Translations under genes and position numbers: made by a program | Shown: positions 5,649-20,988 of the stretch, piece after piece | How positions within the stretch are numbered: position 1 is the stretch's first letter | How the letters are laid out: each line of letters opens with the position of its first letter | The notes under the pieces: generated by a model | What the model saw: the letters and a program-made list of their open reading frames with translations, nothing else | Told to the model about the DNA's origin: nothing | Databases searched by the model: none | Source of the DNA: Laetiporus sulphureus 93-53 | Taxonomy: Eukaryota > Basidiomycota > Agaricomycetes > Polyporales > Laetiporaceae | Direction of reading: 5' to 3' | Assembly: GCF_001632365.1 (NCBI RefSeq) | Contig: NW_024468517.1 | Coordinates: forward strand, 601,247-665,246 | Length of the DNA: 64,000 nucleotides

Positions 5649-8600
5649 CTAGACACAGGCAGAGAATATATCGACTGAAAGACTTAAACCGAGATATGTC
5701 TTGCGATCTGAAGGCAAAAAACTAATATCTTCCACAGACGCACGTATCTTTAGCTCATCTCCTGCCTTGGACATTGCTATCCAGTCTCCGTCGTCAGCCA
5801 CGTCCCAGATGATCACGTGCAATGGCGCTAGATCGTAGCGTCGTAGACTTAGTTCGATCGTCTTCCTCCACCCTGACTCGGGTTCATCGCTCTCGCAGAC
5901 AACCTCGAGGTAAGGGTAGACGACGCGCACAGATCTCTTCGACGCAGGAGGCCGATCATTAATGCGTGACGTAATTGCAAAGACCACTTTGCGTAAAGGC
6001 CTTTCGGGCATCCCCGAAATCTTTGCTTTTATGCCTGGATTACCCCCAGAAAAGTCTGGACTGGACGTCAACGAGGAGCGTTGTCTGACCCAATATCCGG
6101 CGAAATTCAAGATACGTCGTACCAAAGGCAACGGTAGTGGGTGTGAGATCGAGTGCTGTAGCGTCCAGGCCGTCTTCAGTACGTCCATACAGGTTGTAGG
6201 AACGTATTCCGCCGGAATAGCGCCATTTTCCACCAGGAAATTGGTGATCTTCTGGTGAATGGGAACGTCCTCAATCTGGATCGGCGTATGTCCACGATGA
6301 TTGCGTGCGTTGACATCACATCCCGCCTCGACGAGGTATCGAACCACGTCAAGCGAACCTGACAATGCAGCGCAGTGCAGCGCCGTACTTCCATCAACAG
6401 CACGAACATCGACGCCTTCTCCTTTGGATAACATGACTCGTATCATATTCTCTTGGCCGTTGTACGCGGCCCACAGAATTGCATGGTCACCCATCAAGCC
6501 GTCCTTTAGCTGCAGGCACGCTCCATGCGAGAGCAAGAACTTGAATGCTTTGTAATCAGCCTGCCCGATGGCAACCCACATCGCAGAGCAGCGCGAGCCG
6601 TTGAAGAACCAATCCGTGCGTTCAAATTTTTTGATGATCGCTATTATCACGGACATGTCGATATCAGCGCCGCGTTCATATTCCACTGCCACGGACATGT
6701 CGATATCAGCGCCGCAATGCAGCAACAGATCCGCCAAGGCCAGATTATTGAAGTAAATCGCATTAAAGAGCGGTGTGGAAGGGAAAACAACACCGCAAAG
6801 CGATAAACTTGACGGTGACGGCAGTCTGACTAAAGAACGAAGAAGTCGGTGGATAAACGATCGGGATCCAATTCTATGCCAAGACCGCAACCACTGCAAG
6901 AGTGTAGGTGCGCAAGTGTTCAGGACGTTCTCCAGATCATGGAGATCATCCGTCGTATCACTCGGTAAAAGGCGGTGCAAGAAGGAACCCATGTTGAACG
7001 CGATATAATTGCAAAAGGAGTGTTCATCGCAGTTCAGCAGCGTATTTGGTGACTGCAACACAATAATAGATATATAACTGAGTGCAAGTTTTGTAACGTG
7101 CAAGAGAGGGTCGTCGAGGGGAATGTGGAAGATCTTCAATGACGTTTCTTGTCTGTGTTCAAGCAGGAACTCCTGTGCCGGCAGTCAGCACGAGACCTTG
7201 GCAATATACAAGATAGTATACGAACCCGTACGGAGAAGTGAGCCAGAGATACCTCTCGCGTTTTTTCATTGTAGTCGATGAGACTTTTGCAGATCCTGCG
7301 TACCTCCTCGGGCCGACATAATCCATCCTCTTCATTGATTGTGCGTGTGCTTAGCGAGATCTTCATTGCATCACAGATTTCGTCTATATGCACCGGTCCT
7401 GTCGCAGCAACAAGGAGGCTAAGAATTCGCTCGGCGAGCTCAACAACGTGTTTTCCCCGATCATCGATACCGGAGACGATACGCATGTACGTCTCTTTCA
7501 GGCCATGCGGCAAGTTCTGGAGAACGTGTTTCATCCCCGCCACGTTCGCTTGCTCTGCAAGACTGTCCAGCTGACACCGGACCCAGAAGAACCTATAAAG
7601 TAAGATGCTTCAGCTTGATGACTGCATGCGAAGACAAGATCAGCCGCACATTCCATCCGCACCCGATGTTAACTTCTGTATTACTTCTTGCTTGAACTCG
7701 GGTGGAAGGTCGCGCAGTTTTTGATCACCCGAGTTCATCTCCTGGTCAATATATCGTCCAATATCGTTGTTGATGGCCTTTCTTTCATCGGAGAGATCAA
7801 TAGCGGGATGCATACGAAGTTCGAGTTTGATGTGGTCCTCCGGCCGACTTGTAACCAAAACCCGAACTAGGGATGAAGTACGAACCAGTTTCGGTAGACA
7901 CCGCAAAAGTTCTAGCACTTGCTCCCGCTCGGAGAGTTCATCCAGCCCATCCACGATCATGAAGACCGGGCACGATTTCAGATCCACAGCTTTCTTAAGA
8001 AGATTGCACAAGTCCGCGATTTCCTGAGGGGGTGGTTGCGAGTTATCCATTCGCTCGATAAGGTCAGCGAAGTCGCTTTCGGGGAGCTGGATACCGTGAA
8101 GAGCACCGATGATCTGAGACAAGAGCGTCCGCATGACTGTGGCAGGTTCAGTACTTTTTGGGTCATCGAAGCGGCAAAAATGATATGCAATGATTGCGCG
8201 CTTCGTGTCACGTTTGTCGTGAAGGCTCTTGATTACCGACGATCTAAACAGAGACACGGGATTACAAGGTATCATCTATGCTGCAGCTCTAGTACGACTC
8301 ACGCTAATATTGTTTTGCCGCTTCCGGCTGAGAACATGAGTGACCAGATTTCAGCATCAAGGCCCAACCACGGTCAGCGTCTGTCACTTGCCTTTGCCAA
8401 ACAAAGATAGAAACGCAGACGCCGATTGTTCCCAGTGTTTGTAAGCAGCATTGTCGAAGAGCCAGGAGTTGGTGCCTTGCTGTCGCACTTTGATGAAACG
8501 TTCATAGGATACTTGATAAGGGGCAGGAGAAAGCCATGCGATGATTTCCTTTCGTTTGCCTTCTGCTTCGTCCCTGTCCCGTGAGGATTTCACGGCAATG

Positions 8601-9177
8601 CAATGGAGGAAACGGACAGACCTATGACAGCTGTAAGCTGCGTATCCCTGGTTCGATAACAACAGTCTCAGCGCAGCTGTATGCCGTTGAAAGAAGCATT
8701 CTACCTTATATCAACGATTACGTTCCGATTTAGTAGATCCAGAAACTGGTCCAATTTGCTCGCGTACTCTTGCACCGTTTTCTCAGTCCGAACTGCCTTG
8801 ACATTATGTATAGTGCGCTTGGGAATTTGCATGATGCGCTTCAGCATGGGCTTCTTCTTCTGCTCGGGGCCGGATAATTGGGGAAGGAGATCCTCCATGC
8901 TGTGAATATGATCCTCGAGTGGCTGGCGTAACCACGATCCTAACAGCTGCTCCAGCACCCTCTCGTCCTCAGGAGCTGCTCGACTCTTCGTGCTTTTGTC
9001 GTACAGATTCAGAAGTTTATCCAGATGGCTCTCCATCGACTGCAGCTTGCGCAGTAGAGCCTCACCGGTTTCCCTTGCATTTCGGATTTGATGCATGTAT
9101 CCGATGGCCTTGCGAATCAGATCGGAAAGAGTAGCAGCAGCCTTGTAGGCGGTGATAGCAGTCGCCACAGTCGCCAT
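5649..9177 (-). CDS. NLR-like NACHT-ankyrin protein with uncharacterised C-terminal domain
   Basis: Predicted 1,068-aa STAND NTPase of the fungal NLR type, a class tied to non-self recognition and programmed cell death. Six exons close in frame: 9177-8705, 8621-8392, 8327-8303, 8243-7650, 7592-7232 and 7172-5649. Residues 1-157 form a helical N-terminal domain resembling fungal STAND N-terminal (HeLo-like or PigL_N-like) domains. A linker with IIAWLSP and a NSWLF motif leads to the NACHT domain: Walker A GKAGSGKT (about 233-240), Walker B FMIVDGLDEL (about 337-346) and VLVTSRPE (about 371-378). Ankyrin repeats span about 700-880, with GDHAILWAAYNGQ and GSTALHCAALSGS. The last ~160 residues carry ILNFAGYWVR, PLRKVVFAITS and DWIAMSKAGDELKI, shared with the two ankyrin genes at 16.9-21 kb. 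Effector mechanism is inferred, not shown. Confidence 0.88.
6648..6715. repeat. In-frame 42-bp tandem duplication within the NLR ankyrin region
   Basis: A 26-bp sequence beginning cacggacatgtcgatatcag occurs at 6648-6673 and again at 6690-6715, offset 42 bp (14 codons). It encodes the repeated peptide GADIDMSV. The exact match suggests a recent slippage or unequal-exchange event that keeps the reading frame. Confidence 0.85.
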
Positions 9178-9215
9178 AGGTGTGGTGCTGCGTTTGGTCG
9201 ATCATTGTTCGGGCC

Positions 9216-9221
9216 TTTATA
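9216..9221 (-). promoter_or_regulatory. TATA box of the NLR gene
   Basis: TATAAA reads on the minus strand about 40 bp upstream of the NLR start codon at 9177. This implies a very short 5' leader. The match is exact, but core promoter function is inferred. Confidence 0.5.
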
Positions 9222-10627
9222 CCTCCTCACCGCAGACATGAGGTCGGGTCGTGCCATCCAAAAGATGGCTCATGACACACGGCTACGCGAATGGATCAAA
9301 GAACTCACTTAAGTTCAGACTCCGCTGCAGGTTCTAGTTTGCGACTAGCCGCTCAATGTCCGTACTCTGTTGGGGATTTCATCGTTAAAATGTTTAGATT
9401 CTGGACGATACTCATGAATTCTTTCAAGTGAACATGATGTAAAGTCGATGAACACGAGAGGTTTTCAATTGCAGTCTTATAATGCAATCGTCAGCCGCAA
9501 TGTGGGAACATCTGAATCTTCATTTGATTGTCCAATTCGGCATCATGGGCTCATGGGCGTCCTACGTAACCGTCGGAAAGCGGTTCAAGCAACAGCGCGG
9601 GTGCTCAAGCCTGACTCTATAAAAAGAACTGGAAAACGACATACCGAAATCCGTCGCACTGAACGCATCTCATCTATGACTGAACGGTATACGGAAGACT
9701 GGATTCACGGTGAGGAGTGACGATGGATTCCCTTTCATGTTTTCGCACGTCGCCGAGAAGGCAGAAGAAGCCGCTCCCATGATGCCAATAGTCAAGAAAA
9801 ACGAAGCGCGATGGATCCTCTTGCGATAGCTATAGAGCGGATTTATAAAGGCCGGTGGTTGAGCCCGAGATAACGAGACGAAGGTGAAGTGATAAGCGAT
9901 TTCTGCGCATCAAGAAAACTCAAATATTGCTTTTTAGCCCCCTTTAGAGCTTTTTTTGGTCCAAAAAAGGTATTAAGCCCGAAAAGTGTGGGGATCTCCT
10001 GGTTCTGCGCTTATGTTATCCTTTTCTTGGAAAAGTCACACAGAAAGCGCCGGAAAGGTCACGAGATATTCTGTATAAAGACATTAAGCCGGAAAGCCGA
10101 GCTTCGGCTGCTTCTGATGCAGCTGCCTTTTCGAGTAAAAAGCTCTCATAAGGTGGGAAAAAGGTGCAATTTCAGGAGATCCTCATGCTTTTTTCTCTCC
10201 TTAATCCTCGAAAAAGGTGACAAAGTGAGGAAAAAGGTAAAGTTGGAGTTTTCCTGATGTGGTGTAAGCGCTCACAGACATCTTTGGAAGGTGACTCGTA
10301 ACCATAATGCTCAGGAAGTTACGGCTGCTTTATAGCCCACCCTCAATCATCAGTAACAACAACTCTATTTTTACGCCATCAAGTAGCAACAGCAAGGACA
10401 ACACTAGATGGTCACATTGACCGATTATACCGAAGGTAGCAACTGGGTATGGAACATAAATTACATGCTATCTACGCGCACCTCTATGCCATGATTGCGG
10501 AAATCAGAACGGGACGTGATTGCAGCGGAGCAGACAGATGACGGGCAGATCCGGCGATGGATGTATGGACGATGAAAGTTCGAGCCTGTAGGAAAAGGAA
10601 TGGAGGAAAGGAGAGAACGGAAGACGT
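9222..10627. other. Intergenic region with an A-rich patch
   Basis: About 1.4 kb without a supportable gene. The stretch 9890-10260 is A/T-rich and repeats the octamer aaaaaggt at least four times, with tandem variants near 10210-10240. It could be a decayed transposon or a low-complexity spacer. I see no terminal repeats. Confidence 0.4.
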
Positions 10628-12733
10628 CTATGCGGCAGCACGCTTTGATTTTGCGCGGATCTGCTTGCCGAATCGGTAGAACAGGAACGGAACAGGAATC
10701 TTGACGGCGTGTTAGCTGGTGGTGTGGAGAGGAGAAGCTGTCGAAGACAGACGTACCATAGCGATGGAGATGAATGCCCATGTAGATGCAGCCCAGCCGT
10801 TGCCCAGATTGTGGTACATAGCCTCGATGAACAGAGGCATCGCGGCACCGGAGCCGGAACGCACAACGGTCTTCGCGGCCAGTGCAGACGCGACATAACC
10901 GGGGAACGCATCAATGAGATACGCATTGGCGGAGAAGTACAAAATAACCACTGTAAACGCCGCGGTGAGACACTTTTGTACGTCAAACGCGAGACATCGT
11001 ACACTTACTGCCAAAGCCGAACGGGATACCCGAAGAGCACGGTCCGACCCAGTGGCCACCTCCGGGCTGGACGGCCGGGGGAGACGTCCAGCCGAAGATG
11101 AACAGGGAAATGGGAATGAACCAGCAGCCGATCATCATGCCGACGAGACGATCCTCAGGGTCGGCTCTGCCTCCCTTCGCTGCTGCGCGCTTCTGATAGT
11201 TGGCCTCAATGCGCGGGGTGACGAACAGCGCGAGAAAGAGGCCGATCAGGACGGAACAGAAGACGAGGCCCGAGTGTCCATCATCGAAACCGTACCCTTC
11301 TGAGAAGACGACAGGGAAAGCGAAGAAGAAGGAGTACTGAGGTATGAGGTGTCAGAATGTGTTGGTGAACAGGTCCGAAGACGATACTCACAAGAAGACC
11401 ATAGATCAGGGCAACATACAATGACATGAGCAGAAGAATGGGCTCGGTCATGAGCATCTCTGTGGTGATGTGAATATGTAGAAGTTGCCGCGAGAGCACG
11501 TGCAAGACTACTCACGGAAGGGACGGACCAAAGTCTCGATGATAATCTGGGACAGGGAAGCTGAAAACAATTCCTGCTCGGTGGTGATGTTCGGATTCCC
11601 GGTCTCTTTACGTAGGCGTGCCGCACGCCTTTTGAGCAGAGCAGGGGCAAATGTCTCCGGGATAGTGCACGTCAAGGCGGCCGAGACACCCGAAAATATC
11701 ATGTTGATCCAGATAATCCAGCGCCAGCCGATGTTCTCGCCAATGAAGCCACCGATGATAGGGCCCATAACGGGACCACCGTAGGGAGCTGCGGCGAACA
11801 GAGCGATGGCGAATCCACGCTCGTTGTTGTCCCAGAGATCAGAGATTGTCCCACCCGCAAGCGCGAAAGGACCCGATGCGAAAATACCGCAGAAGAACCG
11901 ACAGATACAAAGTGTCTCGATATTCTTTGCGACGGCACATGGAATGTTGAATACTATGTAACGATCAGGATCTGCGGCCTTTGGCTGCATCGAGAATACT
12001 TACTAACATACAGGAAGGCCGGGATGAGCCAAATAGGCCTCCTCCCCACCAACTCGCTCTGAAGATCACGTTATCGTCGGGAAAATGGCGAATAGGAGCC
12101 AAAAACGTGCTCACCAGTGGCGCCCATATTAGCGGTCCAATACCGAAACCGACGACCATCAGCGATACCGTCAACGCAACAACGACCTCTCCGACATGGA
12201 ACTCGTCTTGTATGTCTTTGAAATCACCGGTGATGACAGCGCTGCCGAAGGCAGCGCAGATGACGGTAAATGCGCAAACTCCCGTACAATCTGTTTTTAA
12301 ATTTAAAAAACCGTTTAACTGGCCTGAAGCGTCGTGAAGTGAACGGATGCGACGTACACCAACGGTAGAGATATGACCAGTTGCGAGGGTCCTCCGGATC
12401 GTTTGGGAGCCACGTAACCAACTTCACATCCTTCAGCTGCGCAGCCTTCTCTGGATCCCGAAGAGCACCAGGAATCATAGAGACATGAGTAGGGATCGGT
12501 CGCAAAGCCAGGTCGGCCTGCATGTAACCAGTTTTAGAGACGGTACGATATTCATCTGTGAACCCTCCGCGTTCGACATCCGTGGTGGTGAAGGGGAAAC
12601 TCAGGTCCGCCCTATTGCGATCGTGAGAGGGGGGCGAGCGCAGTTCATTCTCGTCACCGTCTTCTGCCACATACTGGGGGGCCTCATCAGGGACGATGGT
12701 GGCCGTTTCGCTCGGAGACATGTTAGAAGGCAT
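10628..12733 (-). CDS. MFS drug/polyamine-type transporter (DHA1-like)
   Basis: Predicted 568-aa, 12-helix major facilitator in the plasma membrane, probably a proton-coupled exporter. Eight exons join in phase: 12733-12358, 12290-12115, 12058-12004, 11953-11516, 11459-11392, 11336-11009, 10950-10757 and 10699-10628. A hydrophilic N-terminus of about 115 residues contains the PNDPEDPRNWS motif typical of fungal DHA1 members. Between helices 2 and 3 the motif-A variant PLSELVGRRPIW is seen. The IIWINMIFSGV and ASALAAKTVVRSGSGAAMPLF segments are also family-typical. The protein ends RFGKQIRAKSKRAAA. An upstream in-frame Met at 12796 would add 21 residues. An AT-rich TATA-like tatata near 12849-12854 and a strong hairpin at 12899-12949 lie upstream. 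The substrate is unknown. Confidence 0.9.
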
Positions 12734-12898
12734 AATAGAATACGGGAAGTCGTAAGGAGAAGAAAGGGAGAAACGCCGACAGACGGGGACCGTCAAATGC
12801 GGCGAGGAGGGAGAAGGAAAATGGAAACCATGCGCAATTTACGGTCTAATATATAGAGACCCAAGGCGGGTGACAGGCGGTGGCTTGGACGAGGCACG

Positions 12899-12949
12899 TA
12901 GCCGGAGCCCTACAGATTCATCTTGTGTGGATCTGTAGGGCTCCGGCTA
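12899..12949. repeat. Perfect 19-bp inverted repeat (hairpin)
   Basis: The arm tagccggagccctacagat at 12899-12917 is exactly reverse-complementary to 12931-12949, with a 13-nt loop. It lies 166 bp upstream of the MFS start codon. It could be a cruciform, a dimeric regulator site, a small-RNA precursor or the trace of a small transposon. Confidence 0.9.
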
Positions 12950-15900
12950 TAGCCTTGCCCAAAGCTCCGCGAAAATTCCCCACCTCGGAGCATGGCAGAA
13001 AGACCCATTCGCTTGATGGCCAATTAGCGTGAGAGCATGCGAATAGTATTTGCTTTGGAATTCATTCATGGAGTGGTCTACCGAACACGGGTGGTCCAGA
13101 TACTATCCATATCGCCAGTCGACGAGGAGGAACTAGATGAAAGCAAGCGGGGAACATGCAGGACCGACGAGATCAAATCAAGGTATTGACAATTCGTTGT
13201 TGATTAGTCCTGCAACATGACAGAGGGCGAACAACATTGAATATAAAAATGGGGACAAGAAATGCGCGCCCCTCCTTGAGCCACAACTCTCTCCGGCGCC
13301 CCGGCTAGAATCAAGCCCGGTCGTTCCATATATGGTAATTACCCCTCCGACTTACTTTTCTCAGGGTGGCTGTACCCGCCGCATGCTAGCGACAGGCCCT
13401 GCGCAAATGCTCTCGCTGTGCCCACCCTCCATGTACATCTGCATATCCTACAGTCCCTCATCCAGGGCCTCGAAGCGCATGCACGGACAGCATCCGGCTC
13501 CGCTGCATGCAGTCGAGCGATCTCCATTGATTGCTATCAAAGAGAAGAATCCAGGCCTGCACGCTTCACGCGCGGAAACAAACTCTTCCTTGGCCTCAGT
13601 TGCGTTGCGTCTCGCCACAGCATGCTCATCCCGCGCTATCTCAGACAATGCTGCTCGGAATCTGCATGCACGCACATGCGCCGGCGACGACGAATCTTTT
13701 TCTCCCTCCACAACGTGCAACGGTCGCTTTGCCAGCGATGACTGGAAACACATCCGGGTTCCGGCCTCGCCTCACGCCGCGCTCAGGGCTCTCCATCATG
13801 CTTGTGCGCTCGGTCTCCCTGTCGCCCAAACGCGTCGCCACCACCGGTACCCTCTTAGCCGTCGACATACGCGGCGACAATCGCACGCAATCTCGCAAAG
13901 ATGGACAGATAACGCCGCTTCACCGCGCGCTCTGAGGTGATCGTGGCTCAGCCCGCTCGGGTATACGACCGTTCTGAGCGTATGTGGACAAGCCCTAATG
14001 CTGCGCCCGCAGGCGATACAGAGCTTCTGCGGAACAGGCACCCATCCGGCTTTGTCGAAGGTTACAGTGCCGACTGCGACGTGCAGGAAACTTGCCTCTT
14101 CGATGGGGGCGACTCCCGCTGCGCGCCCCTATCTGAACGCTGTGCGTCGGGCGTCGGGCATTGGGCGACGATTGGCGCGTCCGTCGCGTTATACCCTCCT
14201 AATCACCTCCGCTTTGTTCGACTTCCGGCATTCGGTTTGCCGTACATCCGCGCGAGCGTTTCGTCGGTGACTGTAACTGGCTTCTGGCTGATACGCTCAT
14301 GACATGTTATCAGAGCGACAGAGCCAACGCCGGGAAGGAATCAAGCGTGCTCGCCTGGCGGAAGGATGAGCATGAGCGGGTTCATTCATCTCAAAGACGA
14401 GACTCCAAGGTGCGGCCACAGTGCAAGCAAAAGGTGTTTGTTCCTTGTTCTATATTGGGTTCCAGGCGCCAAGAGATTGTTCTTCCCGATACATCACGAT
14501 CTTCGGCATAGCCCGAGATTCTGATGTCCACTGCTCATTGGTCTACGATAATGCTCTATGTTAGGCATGTTCCGAGCCTGGTCCTTGAGCGGAACGGCGG
14601 AGTACTGTAGCTAGACTGTGTTCATGTATCTTTCATGCACATGTCGAAGCCTAAACTGCTATTGAGAAAATTCTGCATACCCATCTTACGAGTCACGCAG
14701 GATATTCGAGGGAAATTTCTCGCGAAAAACTACTCACCAAGATAATTTGGATCCGGCAATCTCGGAATCCGGTGGTCACAATGTTGATATCGCAGTAAGC
14801 CTCGCCGCGCTGGAAGTACCAGATAGATGCTCACGAATGCTCAATGGGGATATCGATGTGGAAGGTTCGGGCACGGAAGAAACACTCCTGCTTATCTTGG
14901 CTGGAAACGTACTGAATGGCAAGGCTCTGACAGGCAGAGACTGCTGGCATGAATACGACGTCTCCAGACAATTCCATACAACTCAACCCACCGGCCTGGG
15001 CTCATCAGGAATAAGCCCGACCTTCCCGGACGCTGTGAACCTCGAGATGCACGCATCGCACACCGAGCGACGCCTACGTCCGACTGGCCAATGGCGTACT
15101 CCACAGAGCGGTCTGCGCTGGTTAGGCCCCGTGCGACGCTTCTTTAGATCTGACTTGGCGGGATTTCGTGCGCGCGCCCCTTCTACCGGTGCGTAGTATT
15201 TGGTGCGGAGCCCAAATAAAAATAACGCGGCTAGTATCTGGGTCGATGCACGTGGCACTGAGGCCGGCTAGCTGCACATCGGACGTTGCCGGCCGGTCGC
15301 GGTGGTGTGTGGCAGTCGGTGGGTGTTCTATACTTAGATGTCTAGAAAGGTGCTGCCAGTGGGGAATGGAGAAGGGTGGGGCCCCGCTTTGCCTCCAGAT
15401 GTTCTTCGGGCGACGTTCTTGCGGTGCTTCGTGATGTTTATGGGGGAATGATAGAAGGTGCAACCGTCGGCCGGGCGAGGGAGCGTGGGTCGGACATCGG
15501 ACGCGACTCATCAATGCACGTGATCGCGTCGTGCGCCACTCAGATCTATATATCTTACAGTGAGAGGTTTTTAGGTTCATGATACAACTGCAGGTGAGGA
15601 CAGAGAAAGAAACAGTTTGCAGCGAATCACTCACTGTATACAGCGAGATACTCTTGATTTTACATACTAGTCAATGTCCACTGAGTGTCATAGCCAAAGC
15701 TATGGTACTCTTGGCAGGTATTGTCGTGCAGAGGATGAATCAATATTGCACCAAGCCTAAGCTATCCGGGAGCGAGGAGTGCTTGCACTTTTCAGTATTC
15801 CAATTCTTGGCGGATCTGTGTCCTCAATAAGTACAAACTACGGTCCAGCCTGGAGACACAGGCCTCAAAACTCACCCAGAGCACTCGTCATCGCCTTCCA

Positions 15901-16908
15901 TGCCTTCGGAGGTCTGGGAGCACTCATGAGGAGCTCTACTCCTAGCAGATAATGTCGAAGTTGATGCGTTGTCACTTTACGGACACGAATACGCATCATG
16001 GAAGTCGTCGCATCATCTGTATCCGAGAAATGTAGGCGCCCTTGAAGTAGAAGCGATCACTGAAACCCATCCCGCGCGTCTTCCTCGATGTGCTTCAGTA
16101 CCAGCATAGCGAGGCTGTTCAAGGGTCGGCTAAGTAGAGCTCGGATTTTTTTTCATGCTGCCCGCCCACGGTACGTTGCATCCGTGTTTCAGCCAGCCGC
16201 CAGCTAAATCGAGCCATCAAAATCTCCTGGATAACGTCTAAGGACACGGAGGTCATTGGCGATCGACCCTTCCACTGCAGCGCAGTCGTAGCTGAGAGCA
16301 AAGAGCAAGAGCTTATCCTTTCGTCGTAAGGTGCGGTATTCCCACACCGTCCATCGAATACGGTGGACATAGAATGTCGGTTTCAAAACGCTGTGCTCGA
16401 AATTGAAATTCGAGACACGGACAATGAAGCCAAGATGACCACTGGTTTGTTGACGTGTCACTTCATGAGGACGAGTGGCCATACCAAAGAGACGAACAGT
16501 TTGATCCACAACATAGTTTCTCTTGCTGACGACATCGACACGTCGGTTGGAAGATGCTTAGGCCCTCTGGAGTCTTAGAATGACGAGCCTGACGGAGTAT
16601 GCGGGGCGTTCAACTTTATTATGCCGCCAGTCCCACACTGCTCTTCCTCTCAGTTACCAGGACATCCTTTCCGGTGCGCTCTCGTGGAGCACGAATAGCA
16701 GAGAAAAACAGTCACGATGTATGGCTCGACATTGGTGTGACTCTACACCTGTGAGCTGCTGTCACTCTCGAAAGAGCATATTTTTATTGGCATACTTATA
16801 ATAGAAATTACAGCAGGTCATAGAACCTGTTTGTCGACGCATATCAGCTCAGCATCAGCTACATTTGATCATTGCCTTATCTCACCTTGCCCGGTATCCT
16901 TTTTCACT
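12950..16908. other. Gene-poor region of about 4 kb
   Basis: No gene model can be supported. TATAAAAA at 13242-13249 is followed 82 bp later by an ATG at 13332, and the next 600 bp are GC-rich and open in several frames on both strands. None of these frames resembles a protein or keeps a coding bias. A minus frame at 16204-16509 looks somewhat protein-like but is unrecognised and lacks a convincing partner exon. Decayed genes, a non-coding RNA or spacer are all possible. Confidence 0.4.
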
Positions 16909-19261
16909 TTATACGCATGCGCAGAAGGTCATGACTTCAACATCATCGATATGATTGACCCATGTATTGAATCGCGCCTTTGCAAAGATAGACAGTCTGT
17001 CTCCTGGTTTGAACTGCTCCATCCATATCTTCGTGCCAGCGTCGGCGCCACACTCCCAAACTTTGATGTGGACGTGCGGGAATGAGGACGCAGGGACATT
17101 GTACGTGATTATTCGACGTGACAGCTCATGGCTATCTCGATAACATCCCGCCTCAAACCAGGTCCACGAACCGCTTTGGTTTCGCCATCCTGTAACGCAA
17201 ATATTCATAAGAACAATGTCCTCCGCACGTCAATGTGAGAACATTATTTGTAGTCCTCACCTTGATCGTGTGACGTGATCTTGAATATGACCTTGCGTAA
17301 AGGATTGTGCGCTCGCCCACTTATGTTCGAAGTGGTGAGACATAGCAGTTCGCGCTCTTCTCCGTCGCCTTTTCCTTGGACAACGCATTTCTTCGTGCCC
17401 TGTTCTCTGTGTCGGACCCAATACTCCGCCAGATCCAAGATCCATTGCACTAGATCTCTCCCGACCAAAGAAGCGAGCAAAGCTGCCATCTGTTCGACAT
17501 CGTCTTTCGTCCGAGGAGCATATATATAGTTATGTCTCAGATCAGCACACTCGACGTCGCTTGCACCGCATTCCCGTAGGTAGCTTCCAACGGAGGTATT
17601 AGTGCATGGTCTGAGTGCATAACACAGCCTGCACGAATTTATTTTTCCACGGGAAACCTGATGAAAAAATGGTGAAAATATCTTAAGTCTGGATATGGAA
17701 ATAGTTTGGAAATCAGGTGGAGACAATTGAATTATGTTTCAATTGCTTCACCGAAACATATCGGTATCACATATTTTTGGACTGAAATATCTTCCTTTGG
17801 GAAATAGAGCCACCGGGGGCATGGGCCCATGATTCTGCCCAAAACATTTTGGACACATTGTAATAACAGTCCAAATAATTATGCAATGTTTTTAGCACAT
17901 ACATTTTGAAATCATTTTGAATGTTTTAAAATGTTTTAAGCATCAACATTGCGGCACAATTTTGATAGCATTCATAAAGATGCAAGAATGAGACCCCAAT
18001 GCTGCAGATGACAGCATTTAAGCATTATGGTGATAGCAACCCAAATGTTTCTTGGGAGAAAATCTCAAATGATACCTGTGAGTGGCCATGATGTTTTCAA
18101 GATGTTCTCAATGGATTCATCGTGATCGCATAATTGTTATTACTATATATAGTAATGTGCTAACCATATTAGGACACCCCTGATGCGTTCAAGATGATTC
18201 CAGCCGGCACATGATGATAAGCATTCTAGTACTCATCGTAACATTACATTGATCACATTTGTAATGTACCCTTAAGATCCATTCAAAATGATACCAATAT
18301 ATTATATGAATGCTGGCCAGAGCAAAATTGTTGTCTCATCCTGGTGTCTTTCTGAATAATATTACTATTATTCCACAATGAGCTCACTCGAAATAATTCA
18401 AATCATTCTGTGATGTTTACATCAGTAACATTAGAGTTACATTGTGACTGTTATCGTGATGTGTCCAAAATGTTCCCAGCGGAATCATGGGCTCATGCCC
18501 CCGGTGAGCCACTATTGCTGATACGTTTCGGTAAAACAATCATAACATAATTCAATTGTCTCCACCCGATTTTCAAACTATTTTCATATCCAGACATAAG
18601 ATATTTTCACCATTTTTGCATCAGGTTTCCCGTGGAAAAATAAATCTATGCAGGCTGTGTAAGGCGTGTATCCGGAATGATTACGTGCGTGGATGTCGCA
18701 CCCCGCCTCCACCAAGATACGCGCCATGGCCGTATATCTCGAAGCGACTGCACAATGCAAGGCCGTGCGGCGGTCGGCGGCGGTCGTGTCCGCGTCCGCT
18801 CCATCACCCAAGAGGCTCTTCACCATCCCCATGCGGCCCCTGTACGCTGCGAAGAGAATGGCATGATCTCCCATATACCCACCCTCCAAATGCGGACTGG
18901 CTCCGTGAGCCAACAGAAAGGCAAAGATGTTCTCGTCTCCGGTCTCGATAGCGACCCAAAGCGCGGCGGACACGCAGCATCCGGTGCCGTACCGCGCGCT
19001 TCGAGTCCATGCCGGCCTGGTGCATCGTGCGTACTCGTTGATATCTGCCCCTTCTTCGAGGATTCGCCTCATCTCGTGCACATGCCCCATCATCGTAGAA
19101 GTCATGCGCGGAGTGCCATGACAGTCTATCTCGCAGATAGCAAGCTTAACCAGCTTTCGCTCCTCGTCCCGAGGCTCGTTGATTGGCATTTCAGAGCTGG
19201 CAGATGTGATTGAGTTTGCATTCCAGTCTGAGTCGTGTGTGGGGTCGTAGTCGCCCAGCAT
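16909..19261 (-). pseudogene. Ankyrin protein with shared C-terminal domain, split by a transposon
   Basis: The gene is a paralog of the one at 19714-20988, interrupted by a 1,037-bp foldback element. The N-terminal part (19261 down to 18660) starts MLGDYDPTHDSD and carries ankyrin repeats with GDHAILFAAYRGRMGMVKSL and RRTALHCAVASR. The C-terminal part (17619-17261, then 17189-16909 after an intron) carries ILDLAEYWVRHRE, NPLRKVIFKITSHDQG and KPGDRLSIFAKARF. The flanking coding sequence is otherwise undamaged. Removing the element plus one copy of the TAA duplication leaves the frame continuous, giving a pre-insertion protein of about 413 aa against 405 in the paralog. As it stands, translation would run about 25 codons into the element and stop at 18584 (225 aa). 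The insertion therefore looks recent. Splicing around the element is not excluded. Confidence 0.85.
17623..18659. mobile_element. Non-autonomous foldback DNA transposon (long-TIR, 3-bp TSD)
   Basis: A 1,037-bp AT-rich element with terminal inverted repeats of at least about 200 bp and roughly 85% identity. Both ends read inward as cacagcctgca...tttatttttccacgggaaac. The similarity continues through ccgggggcatg and on to acattttggacaca, with indels. It is flanked by TAA at 17620-17622 and 18660-18662, a 3-bp target-site duplication. The interior is full of aatgttt-like repeats and has no transposase ORF. Ends starting CAC with a 3-bp duplication would suit the CACTA-like (CMC) group, while TWA targets also suit PIF/Harbinger; I cannot choose. 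Confidence 0.88.
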
Positions 19262-19713
19262 GTTACGTAGAGGATACAAGATGGCGATTGTAAGAGGCAA
19301 TGTGCGCTAAAATACCGGCTCTCGTATAAATCAGTCGAAGTTGGACATCATGCATGGAAGACTCGGCAGAACCGACGCTGCTTTACTGAACAGGATTTGG
19401 ACTTGCTGTATCAGCAAGAAGCGCAGCCACGCGCACAATGAAAGGCGTTCGCGTAACTAATTGATATACATAACGAAGGTATTGCCAAATTTGCAGTGAC
19501 CCAACCGAATAGCCGCATACACATTGATTTGAGATTTGATGAGCTTCGCCACGATGCTTGACTAGGATCGAAGGATGTGAAGATGTAAAATATATACAAC
19601 CTTCAGGAGCATTGTCTGAGTCTTCATCTGTTGCAGCGACTAGCCGTTAGTACCAAATGCATCATTGAGTAGTTGGTTCACGCACTTCAGAACGACCGAT
19701 CTAGTACGAGAGT
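19262..19713. other. Spacer between the two ankyrin paralogs
   Basis: About 450 bp holding the upstream region of the disrupted paralog and the 3' flank of the intact one. No gene or repeat is recognised. Confidence 0.45.
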
Positions 19714-20988
19714 CTATACGTAGGCACAGAAAGTCATCACCTGAACGTTCAGTACGTCATTGCACCATCCACTGAATTGTGCCTTCGCATAGATCAACAA
19801 TGTATCTCCCCGCTTGAACTGTGCCATCCAGTCATGTGTGCCTTCATCGGCATGCACGTCCCAGATCTTGATATGCGTGTGCGGAACTGAGTTTGCAGGC
19901 ATGTTGTATGCGATAGTTCTACGAGGCAGCTCGCGATGTTCTCGACAACCACCGGCTTCGAACCATGTCCACGATCCATCGTGCGTGCGCCACCCTAGGA
20001 CGATCATTCATTAGCGACTACGTAGTTGGCCCGCACGAACACTCGGTATACCTTGATCGTTAGCGACGATTTTGAAGATGACCTTGCGCAAAGGTCGATA
20101 TACTCGTCCCATAATTCCTGTGCTGAGGCATAACGATTGGCGCTCGAGTCTATCGCCGCCCCCTCTTACTTTTGGAGTCACCATCTCCGAAGACTCGATT
20201 CGCCGAACCCAATACTCTGCAAAATCCAAAATTTGACGAACGAGATCTCGCACTGTCAAACGCGCCAGCAATATTGCTGTTCGTTTGACGTCGTCCTCCG
20301 AGCGAGGAACGTACTCGTGCAACATATCTTCGCGCCCCTGATCCGTTGCACCGTGAAGGATAAGATCCTGTGTGACGGCTTCATCCCAAGCGAATTGACG
20401 TGGTGTGCAGCCGAAATGGTTACGAGCGTTGAAATTGCAACCCGCGTCCGATAGAAGCTGTCTTATCGCGCCAGCCCTTGGATGGAATGCATAGTGTAAG
20501 GCCGTACGGCCATCTTTGGCTCTCGTATTCACGTCCGCCCCCTGATCTAAGAGGATCCTCACAATCTCCGCCCTTCCTCTGTATGCAGCAAAGAGGACCG
20601 CGTGGTCGCCCATGTAACCATCGGGTAAGTGAGGGCTTGCTCCGTGGTCAAGTAGGAAATTGAAGGCGTCCAAGCTACCAATATCGATCGCGACCCACAA
20701 AGCCGATACGCAAGAGCCGGCAGCGTACCATGCATGTCGAGTGGATGTCGGTCTGGTGCATCGCGCAAACGCGTTGATATCGGCGCCATTCTCCAGAATG
20801 CGCCTCATTTCGCGCACATTGTGTTCACGCGTCGCTGTCATGAGCCTGGTGGCGTGACAGTCTATCTCGCAGACCGAGAGTCTGCGCAGTCCTTGTTGAT
20901 CGTCCAAAAACTCGTTAAGTTGGACTTCAGAGTGAGCCGATACGACGGAGTCCGTGTCCGAATCGTGTTCGGCGTCATTATGATCCAT
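19714..20988 (-). CDS. Ankyrin-repeat protein with NLR-shared C-terminal domain
   Basis: Predicted 405-aa soluble protein. Two exons, 20988-20052 and 19994-19714, join in phase 1 within NDQG|W. Residues 1-55 are acidic. Ankyrin repeats span about 50-200, with GDHAVLFAAYRGRAEIVRIL and DGRTALHYAFHPR. The C-terminal module from about 245 shows LVRQILDFAEYWVRR, RPLRKVIFKIVANDQG, a WTWFEAG strand and WMAQFKRGDTLLIYAKAQF, ending in MTFCAYV. The same module ends the NLR at 5.6-9.2 kb and the disrupted paralog next door. There is no NACHT or N-terminal death-fold domain, so it looks like a stand-alone sensor or decoy derived from, or donor to, the NLR. That role is inference. The clean ORF and conserved motifs suggest it is functional. 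Confidence 0.87.

What the first reader, a model, noticed from the sequence alone, without database searches (positions are those of the whole stretch)
5649..20988. One NLR and two stand-alone ankyrin proteins share an unassigned C-terminal domain
The NACHT-ankyrin protein (5649-9177), the intact ankyrin protein (19714-20988) and the disrupted one (16909-19261) all end in the same module. Matching blocks are ILNFAGYWVR / ILDFAEYWVRR / ILDLAEYWVR, then PLRKVVFAITS / PLRKVIFKIVA / PLRKVIFKITS, then DWIAMSKAGDELKI / DWMAQFKRGDTLLI / IWMEQFKPGDRLSI. I know no named domain for it. Placing an NLR near NACHT-less proteins with its ankyrin and C-terminal parts suggests a sensor/decoy or paired recognition system, in the spirit of fungal heterokaryon-incompatibility NLRs. 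The role is inference.
Basis: partly seen in the sequence, partly recalled or inferred. Interest (0 to 1): 0.78.

Follow-up and report, generated by a model that had tools for sequence, protein, structure and literature searches.

The report
Fungal immune receptor sharing neighbours' tail
In a wood-rotting mushroom, an immune-receptor-like gene and two neighbouring genes share the same ankyrin-plus-beta-sandwich tail; the sandwich belongs to an unnamed fungal protein family, and the receptor's copy has lost the family's most conserved patch, which could mark a changed recognition surface.

Summary
The window is Laetiporus sulphureus 93-53. The NLR (5649-9177), an intact ankyrin gene (19714-20988) and an ankyrin gene broken by an inserted element (16909-19261) share one module, wider than reported: NLR residues 686-1044 align with residues 37-385 of the 405-aa ankyrin protein.

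No Pfam model names the C-terminal domain. It belongs to a fungal family: 255 hits, 120 listed. AlphaFold2 gives a confident jelly-roll-like sandwich (pLDDT 92.5) with only generic matches. Within the lengths searched (most NLRs excluded), 4 of 121 members carry ankyrin repeats, so the domain is not mainly an ankyrin partner there.

New: the NLR copy keeps 12 of 12 conserved early positions but 4 of 23 later ones (DQGW, SWTWF, N..A, GW.N); no other near-full-length member has under 12. It also lacks one predicted strand. Its frame stays open; simulated neutral decay did so in 2 of 2000 runs. It looks repurposed rather than decayed. An integrated-bait or sensor role is plausible, unproven.

The parts
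5649..9177 (-). NLR gene: N-terminal region, NACHT-type NTPase, ankyrin array, C-terminal jelly-roll-like domain (1070 aa); exons 9177-8705, 8621-8392, 8327-8303, 8243-7650, 7592-7226, 7172-5649
   Evidence: spliced model with open frame to its stop (first acceptor site uncertain); PF24883 NPHP3_N E=2.9e-18 and Ank families
8705..9177 (-). NLR N-terminal region; no Pfam family over its cut-off, no significant other match in this genome (next E=0.39)
7650..8391 (-). NTPase core of the NLR; Walker A (AGSGKT) is completed across a GC-AG intron (8391-8328), Walker B FMIVDGLDE
   Evidence: motif names recalled
6207..6806 (-). NLR ankyrin array (residues 686-885); best other matches in the genome are the arrays of the two neighbours
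   Evidence: 112.3 and 108.2 bits vs 33.6 for the next locus
5649..6209 (-). NLR linker and C-terminal domain with replaced loops
19714..20988 (-). Intact ankyrin + jelly-roll-like protein (405 aa, P0001); exons 20988-20052 and 19994-19714
19714..20325 (-). Linker and C-terminal domain of the intact ankyrin protein (intron 20051-19995 inside it)
16909..19261 (-). Disrupted ankyrin + jelly-roll-like gene: N part 19261-18660, C part 17622-16909 with intron 17260-17190
   Evidence: C remnant is P0002
17623..18659 (.). Inserted element with inverted ends (MITE-like), TAA target duplication; its end is found at 39 other places

Best explanation
The three genes are a local family. The stand-alone proteins are ankyrin + jelly-roll-like proteins that keep the family's conserved loop patch. 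The NLR carries the same ankyrin + sandwich unit as its C-terminal recognition region on a NACHT switch. In the NLR most of the conserved loop residues are replaced and one predicted strand is missing, so this domain probably no longer binds the family's usual ligand or partner and instead serves as an altered recognition surface or bait. Binding to it, or to the ankyrin array, or release of a contact with the neighbouring ankyrin protein, would free the NACHT to oligomerise and trigger a response. Shown: homology, loop loss, open frame, neighbourhood. Predicted: the fold. Inferred: ligand, direction of the fusion, signalling.
For: Homology of the NLR tail with the neighbour over array, linker and domain. 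The NLR's ankyrin array matches the two neighbours (112 and 108 bits) far better than any other locus found (33.6 bits). NLR keeps 12 of 12 early and 4 of 23 late conserved positions (3 of the 23 are gaps), Fisher p=2e-6, with the split chosen after seeing the data; other near-full-length members have 12 or more, median 21. In the loop columns NLR matches ANK at 0 of 27 and the broken copy at 0 of 27, against 19 of 30 between those two; in the rest of the domain NLR matches ANK at 48 of 124. Simulated neutral decay stayed stop-free in 2 of 2000 runs (to 36% identity) and 7 of 2000 (to 45%). Precedents: SPRY domains in 46 Sordariales NLRs, always C-terminal and with ankyrin (PMC12258605, passages); a C-terminal beta-sandwich lectin fold sets allele specificity in het-B, where the partner is the adjacent gene (PMC10890737, passages; direct binding there is the authors' model).
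Against: No ligand, expression, polymorphism or phenotype data. The NLR's loop region is hard to align, so 0 of 27 may partly be misalignment. The NLR copy has a deletion over one strand of P0002 (residues 43-50 in the alignment), and its model has one strand fewer, so its scaffold is not fully kept. That model was guided by relatives and has blocks of pLDDT 62-75 in the domain (36 and 51 in the flank). The decay simulation is substitution-only and assumes that all the divergence was neutral; late relaxation is not excluded. One neighbour is broken in this strain. Two Rhodofomes paralogues with no Pfam domain also lose part of the patch (12 late positions each), so loop loss is not special to an NLR.
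Confidence: 0.42

Rival explanations
1. The NLR came first and the stand-alone genes are NACHT-less partial duplicates of it, kept as regulators or on the way out.
For: Same strand, near each other; one copy is already broken by a mobile element; three genes cannot be rooted.
Against: The stand-alone copies, not the NLR, keep the family-wide motif and share an intron at the same place in the domain that the NLR lacks. Relatives in Daedalea, Rhodofomes and Fomitopsis hold the same linker and domain with no Pfam ankyrin or NACHT match.
Confidence: 0.25
2. The neighbouring ankyrin protein is the direct partner: a guardee or inhibitor that the NLR holds through its related tail.
For: Nearby genes with homologous arrays; members of the family share one contig length per species in four Polyporales species; analogy to het-B.
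Against: No interaction data; nothing shows that the domain or array self-associates.
Confidence: 0.15
3. The tail is an ordinary C-terminal region of a fungal NLR; the sandwich has no recognition role of its own and its loop loss is relaxed constraint.
For: Ankyrin repeats made up 42% of annotated C-terminal regions in a survey of fungal NLRs (PMC4986451, passages); the NLR copy has lost a strand and most conserved late positions, and its end branch is the longest of the tree.
Against: In the relatives in hand the domain mostly stands without ankyrin, so it is not just a cap; the frame is open to the end.
Confidence: 0.18

Closest known systems
SPRY-bearing ankyrin NLRs of Sordariales (PMC12258605, passages)
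   Same: A binding-type domain at the C-terminus of an NLR, always with ankyrin repeats; the authors discuss integrated decoys.
   Different: The domain here matches no SPRY model, and stand-alone homologues lie beside the NLR.
het-B (Bh/Bp) of Podospora anserina (PMC10890737, passages)
   Same: C-terminal beta-sandwich domain that sets specificity; partner encoded by the adjacent gene.
   Different: Bh has a HET domain and is not an NLR; the partner is PII-like, not a homologue of the sensor tail; the fold there is FB-lectin-like.
Plant NLRs with integrated decoys (recalled; cited in PMC12258605 and PMC5658179)
   Same: NLR with a domain homologous to a separate host protein.
   Different: No effector or effector target is known here.
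Ankyrin NACHT NLRs of fungi (PMC4986451, passages)
   Same: NTPase plus ankyrin repeats.
   Different: Extra jelly-roll-like domain after the repeats and NACHT-less neighbours with the same tail.

Membership tests
NLR / STAND with NACHT | NACHT-type P-loop NTPase with Walker A and B | tested here: met
   PF24883 67 bits, E=2.9e-18, over its cut-off on the exon without Walker A; PF05729 (NACHT) itself is below its cut-off, 17.5 vs 26.7 bits. AGSGKT and FMIVDGLDE in the spliced model (motif names recalled).
NLR / STAND with NACHT | C-terminal repeat region | tested here: met
   Ank E=3.9e-20, Ank_2 E=4.6e-20
NLR / STAND with NACHT | Recognised N-terminal effector domain | tested here: inconclusive
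   No Pfam family over its cut-off; no significant other copy in the genome
NLR with integrated decoy | Domain homologous to a stand-alone protein of the same organism | tested here: met
   E=2e-49 with the neighbour, including the ankyrin array
NLR with integrated decoy | The stand-alone protein is the target of an invader's effector | not testable with these tools
   no interaction data
NLR with integrated decoy | The integrated domain is needed for activation | not testable with these tools
   needs deletion and assay
SPRY domain | Match to a SPRY profile | tested here: not met
   No SPRY model at E<=1 for the NLR exon or 16 relatives, nor at E<=0.01 in 94 members
TNF-like lectins (BC2L-C, PLTL) | A specific structural relationship beyond a shared jelly roll | tested here: inconclusive
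Fruit-body lectin fold as in BH1 | Structural match to FB-lectins | tested here: inconclusive
   Not among the rows listed; that excludes nothing

The most novel reading that the evidence does not exclude
A one-locus guard system in a mushroom: the neighbouring ankyrin + jelly-roll-like protein carries out the family's conserved binding, and the NLR holds a related but binding-patch-replaced copy of the same tail that works as a bait or altered receptor, with the jelly-roll family being a general, undescribed fungal recognition domain.
Probability: 0.2. Interest if true: 0.8.

Novelty: new variant of a known kind. Interest (0 to 1): 0.55.

Why it matters
What fungal NLRs recognise is largely unknown, and roughly half of their N- and C-terminal domains had no annotation in a 2014 survey (PMC4986451, passages). 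This locus offers a confidently predicted C-terminal domain with a fungal family behind it, a clear conserved patch, a natural loss-of-patch copy inside an NLR, and a candidate partner nearby. That turns a vague question into binding and mutation tests.

Tried and rejected
Chance similarity: rejected. A known family for the C-terminal part: none over a cut-off. Weak Pfam rows were DUF7146 (E=0.05) on the broken copy, DUF2281 on the N-terminal helix of P0007 (E=0.012, below its cut-off) and in 2 of 94 members (best E=0.0013), and ODAM in 1 of 94 (E=0.005); none covers the sandwich as far as shown. The NCBIfam rows are ankyrin matches far below their cut-offs. Solved structures by sequence: best E 0.73 and 0.62, not meaningful. 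A function from the fold: many unrelated jelly rolls at similar scores, so none was taken; FB-lectins and SPRY not among the listed rows, which excludes nothing. Relation of the NLR N-terminus to the N-termini of Fomitopsis/Rhodofomes relatives: not found. Homologues in prokaryote genomes or viral contigs: none confirmed with A1 or P0007; these scans need near-exact short peptides and are weak. The first protein search, with the ANK domain alone at E<=0.001, found only the protein itself. NLR decay as a pseudogene: judged unlikely, not excluded. Other NLRs with this domain were not looked for, because of the length windows; P0086, an ankyrin + sandwich fragment, could be the end of one (guess). 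Motif strings in papers: 0 papers, which says little because papers rarely print sequence.
Full report
Identity and gene models. The ankyrin protein at 20988-19714 is identical to a public protein of Laetiporus sulphureus 93-53, a polypore; the window lies in contig C8 of a 38.6-Mb assembly. The NLR model has six exons and 1070 residues. Its introns follow GT-AG except one GC-AG intron that completes the Walker A motif; the first acceptor is uncertain. The NTPase matches PF24883 (E=2.9e-18) and the array several Ank families. The genome search found 7 places with PF24883 at E<=0.001, this NLR among them and one with stops inside; such counts are lower bounds.

The shared tail. NLR residues 686-1044 align with residues 37-385 of the 405-aa ankyrin protein over the array, the linker (EYVP..) and most of the sandwich domain: 133 of 377 identical, E=2e-49; the broken gene's pieces give E=2e-33 and 4e-13. 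Shuffled controls are far lower. With the ankyrin protein's domain as query, only these three genes came back from the genome, and the NLR's array has the two neighbours as its closest other matches by a wide margin. By region, NLR and ANK share 75 of 183 positions in the array, 26 of 61 in the first part of the domain and 22 of 90 in the second; ANK and the broken copy share 99 of 161, 41 of 69 and 58 of 96. So this is a local family with the whole tail in common.

The broken gene. A 1,037-bp element at 17623-18659, with inverted ends and a TAA target duplication, interrupts the array's end. The 178 bases at one of its ends match 40 places including this one over near-full length at 93-100%; 40 of 50 candidates were scored, so more may exist. 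The downstream part is annotated at NCBI as a separate 169-aa protein (P0002).

The domain family. A single-protein search found only the protein itself. A three-sequence profile gave Daedalea, Rhodofomes and Fomitopsis relatives and one unnamed protein. A five-sequence profile gave 255 proteins at E<=10, 120 listed; E-values are for 5.8 billion sequences. With P0002 this makes 121 proteins in hand; the other 135 were not seen. By my count 41 of the 121 bear an organism name, all fungi: 11 Polyporales and 30 others that I take as Ascomycota (for example Penicillium, Venturia, Alternaria, Fusarium, Cordyceps, Knufia). Ankyrin is present in 4 of 121 by precomputed Pfam (P0001, P0058, P0083, P0086) and in 4 of 94 by my scan, which found no other family beyond weak DUF2281, ODAM and KRIT1-ankyrin rows. 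Lengths over about 462 aa could not appear, which hides most NLRs. On a quick tree of 121 rows (NLR included, P0116 dropped as too short) the ankyrin label, with P0002 and the NLR counted as ankyrin, needs 5 changes; the tree's group table, which leaves out the 104 unlabelled rows, gives 1, and of P0058, P0083 and P0086 only P0086 sits in a starred group, so repeated gain is suggested, not shown. By simple rules 21 of 121 start with a myristoylation-like MG motif and 23 with a hydrophobic stretch; 77 have neither (crude, motif recalled).

What differs in the NLR. Of 35 positions conserved in at least 75% of the relatives (start Met left out), the NLR keeps 12 of 12 before residue 73 of P0002 and 4 of 23 from there on, 3 of the 23 being gaps; the intact ankyrin protein keeps 10 of 12 early, and over 36 positions, start Met included, it keeps 30 of the 35 it has. 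The fragment P0116 keeps 4 of the 7 late ones it has; the next are the Rhodofomes paralogues P0019 (12 of 21) and P0018 (12 of 23). The lost positions (D75 Q76 G77 W78, S84 to F88, N107, A110, A148, G152, W153, N155 and a few more) sit in or next to the loops 75-86, 106-115 and 149-154. In those loop columns NLR matches its neighbours at 0 of 27, and the rest of the domain at 48 of 124 with ANK; the loop set was defined after the loss was seen, so it is descriptive. The frame runs to the family's usual end (FSACV, cf. FCAYV, FCACV), and simulated neutral decay to 36% identity kept an open frame in 2 of 2000 runs, under a simple substitution model. The NLR has the longest end branch, 2.03 against a median of 0.18.

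Mechanism. The best reading is an NLR whose recognition tail is of the same make as its neighbours' proteins and whose sandwich surface has been retuned or blanked. That is what an integrated bait, an altered receptor, or a partner-binding tail would look like; the sequence cannot choose between them, and relaxed constraint remains possible. The family-wide motif and the shared domain intron in the stand-alone genes favour the NLR as the derived copy (inference).

Literature, as seen. PMC12258605: passages; SPRY domains in 46 Sordariales NLRs, always C-terminal and with ankyrin; kinase domains proposed as integrated decoys. PMC10890737: passages; a chimeric allele shows that the C-terminal lectin fold of BH1 sets specificity in het-B, with the adjacent gene Bp as partner; direct binding is the authors' model. 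PMC4986451, PMC12881547 and PMC5658179: passages. PMC9815663: search listing with start of abstract. In the listings of searches I saw no title or abstract start that describes this domain or locus; the library holds open-licence papers only and I read none of the rest.

Verdict. A real, well-supported local family with an unnamed fungal domain; a new variant of NLRs with an extra C-terminal binding-type domain. The functional claim is a testable hypothesis.

Noticed in passing
window 17623-18659: MITE-like element with TAA target duplication; its end matches 39 other places over near-full length at 93-97%. In the pairs I compared, the two arms lie about 20 nt apart there, while here 757 nt separate them.
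   Followed up: partly
window 8391-8328: GC-AG intron that splits the Walker A region of the NLR.
   Followed up: no
window 6648-6715: Perfect 26-nt direct repeat, spacing 42 nt (a multiple of three), in the NLR ankyrin array: a recent small duplication.
   Followed up: no
   Followed up: partly
P0009, P0016, P0018, P0019: Extra N-terminal regions, helical-looking by eye and partly alike, with no Pfam family over its cut-off; no detectable relation to the NLR N-terminus.
   Followed up: partly
P0106 (Alternaria burnsii): Sandwich domain after a long alanine- and glycine-rich, partly hydrophobic region, perhaps membrane-associated (by eye).
   Followed up: no
P0072 (Penicillium digitatum): Named 'Ankyrin repeat protein' by its source although its precomputed Pfam column shows no ankyrin.
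   Followed up: no
window 27589-63903: Of 10 neighbouring frames scanned, 6 match families at E<=0.001: separase C50, thymidylate synthase, F-box-like, Mur ligase, KRE6/SKN1 and a fungal transcription-factor domain below its cut-off.
   Followed up: partly
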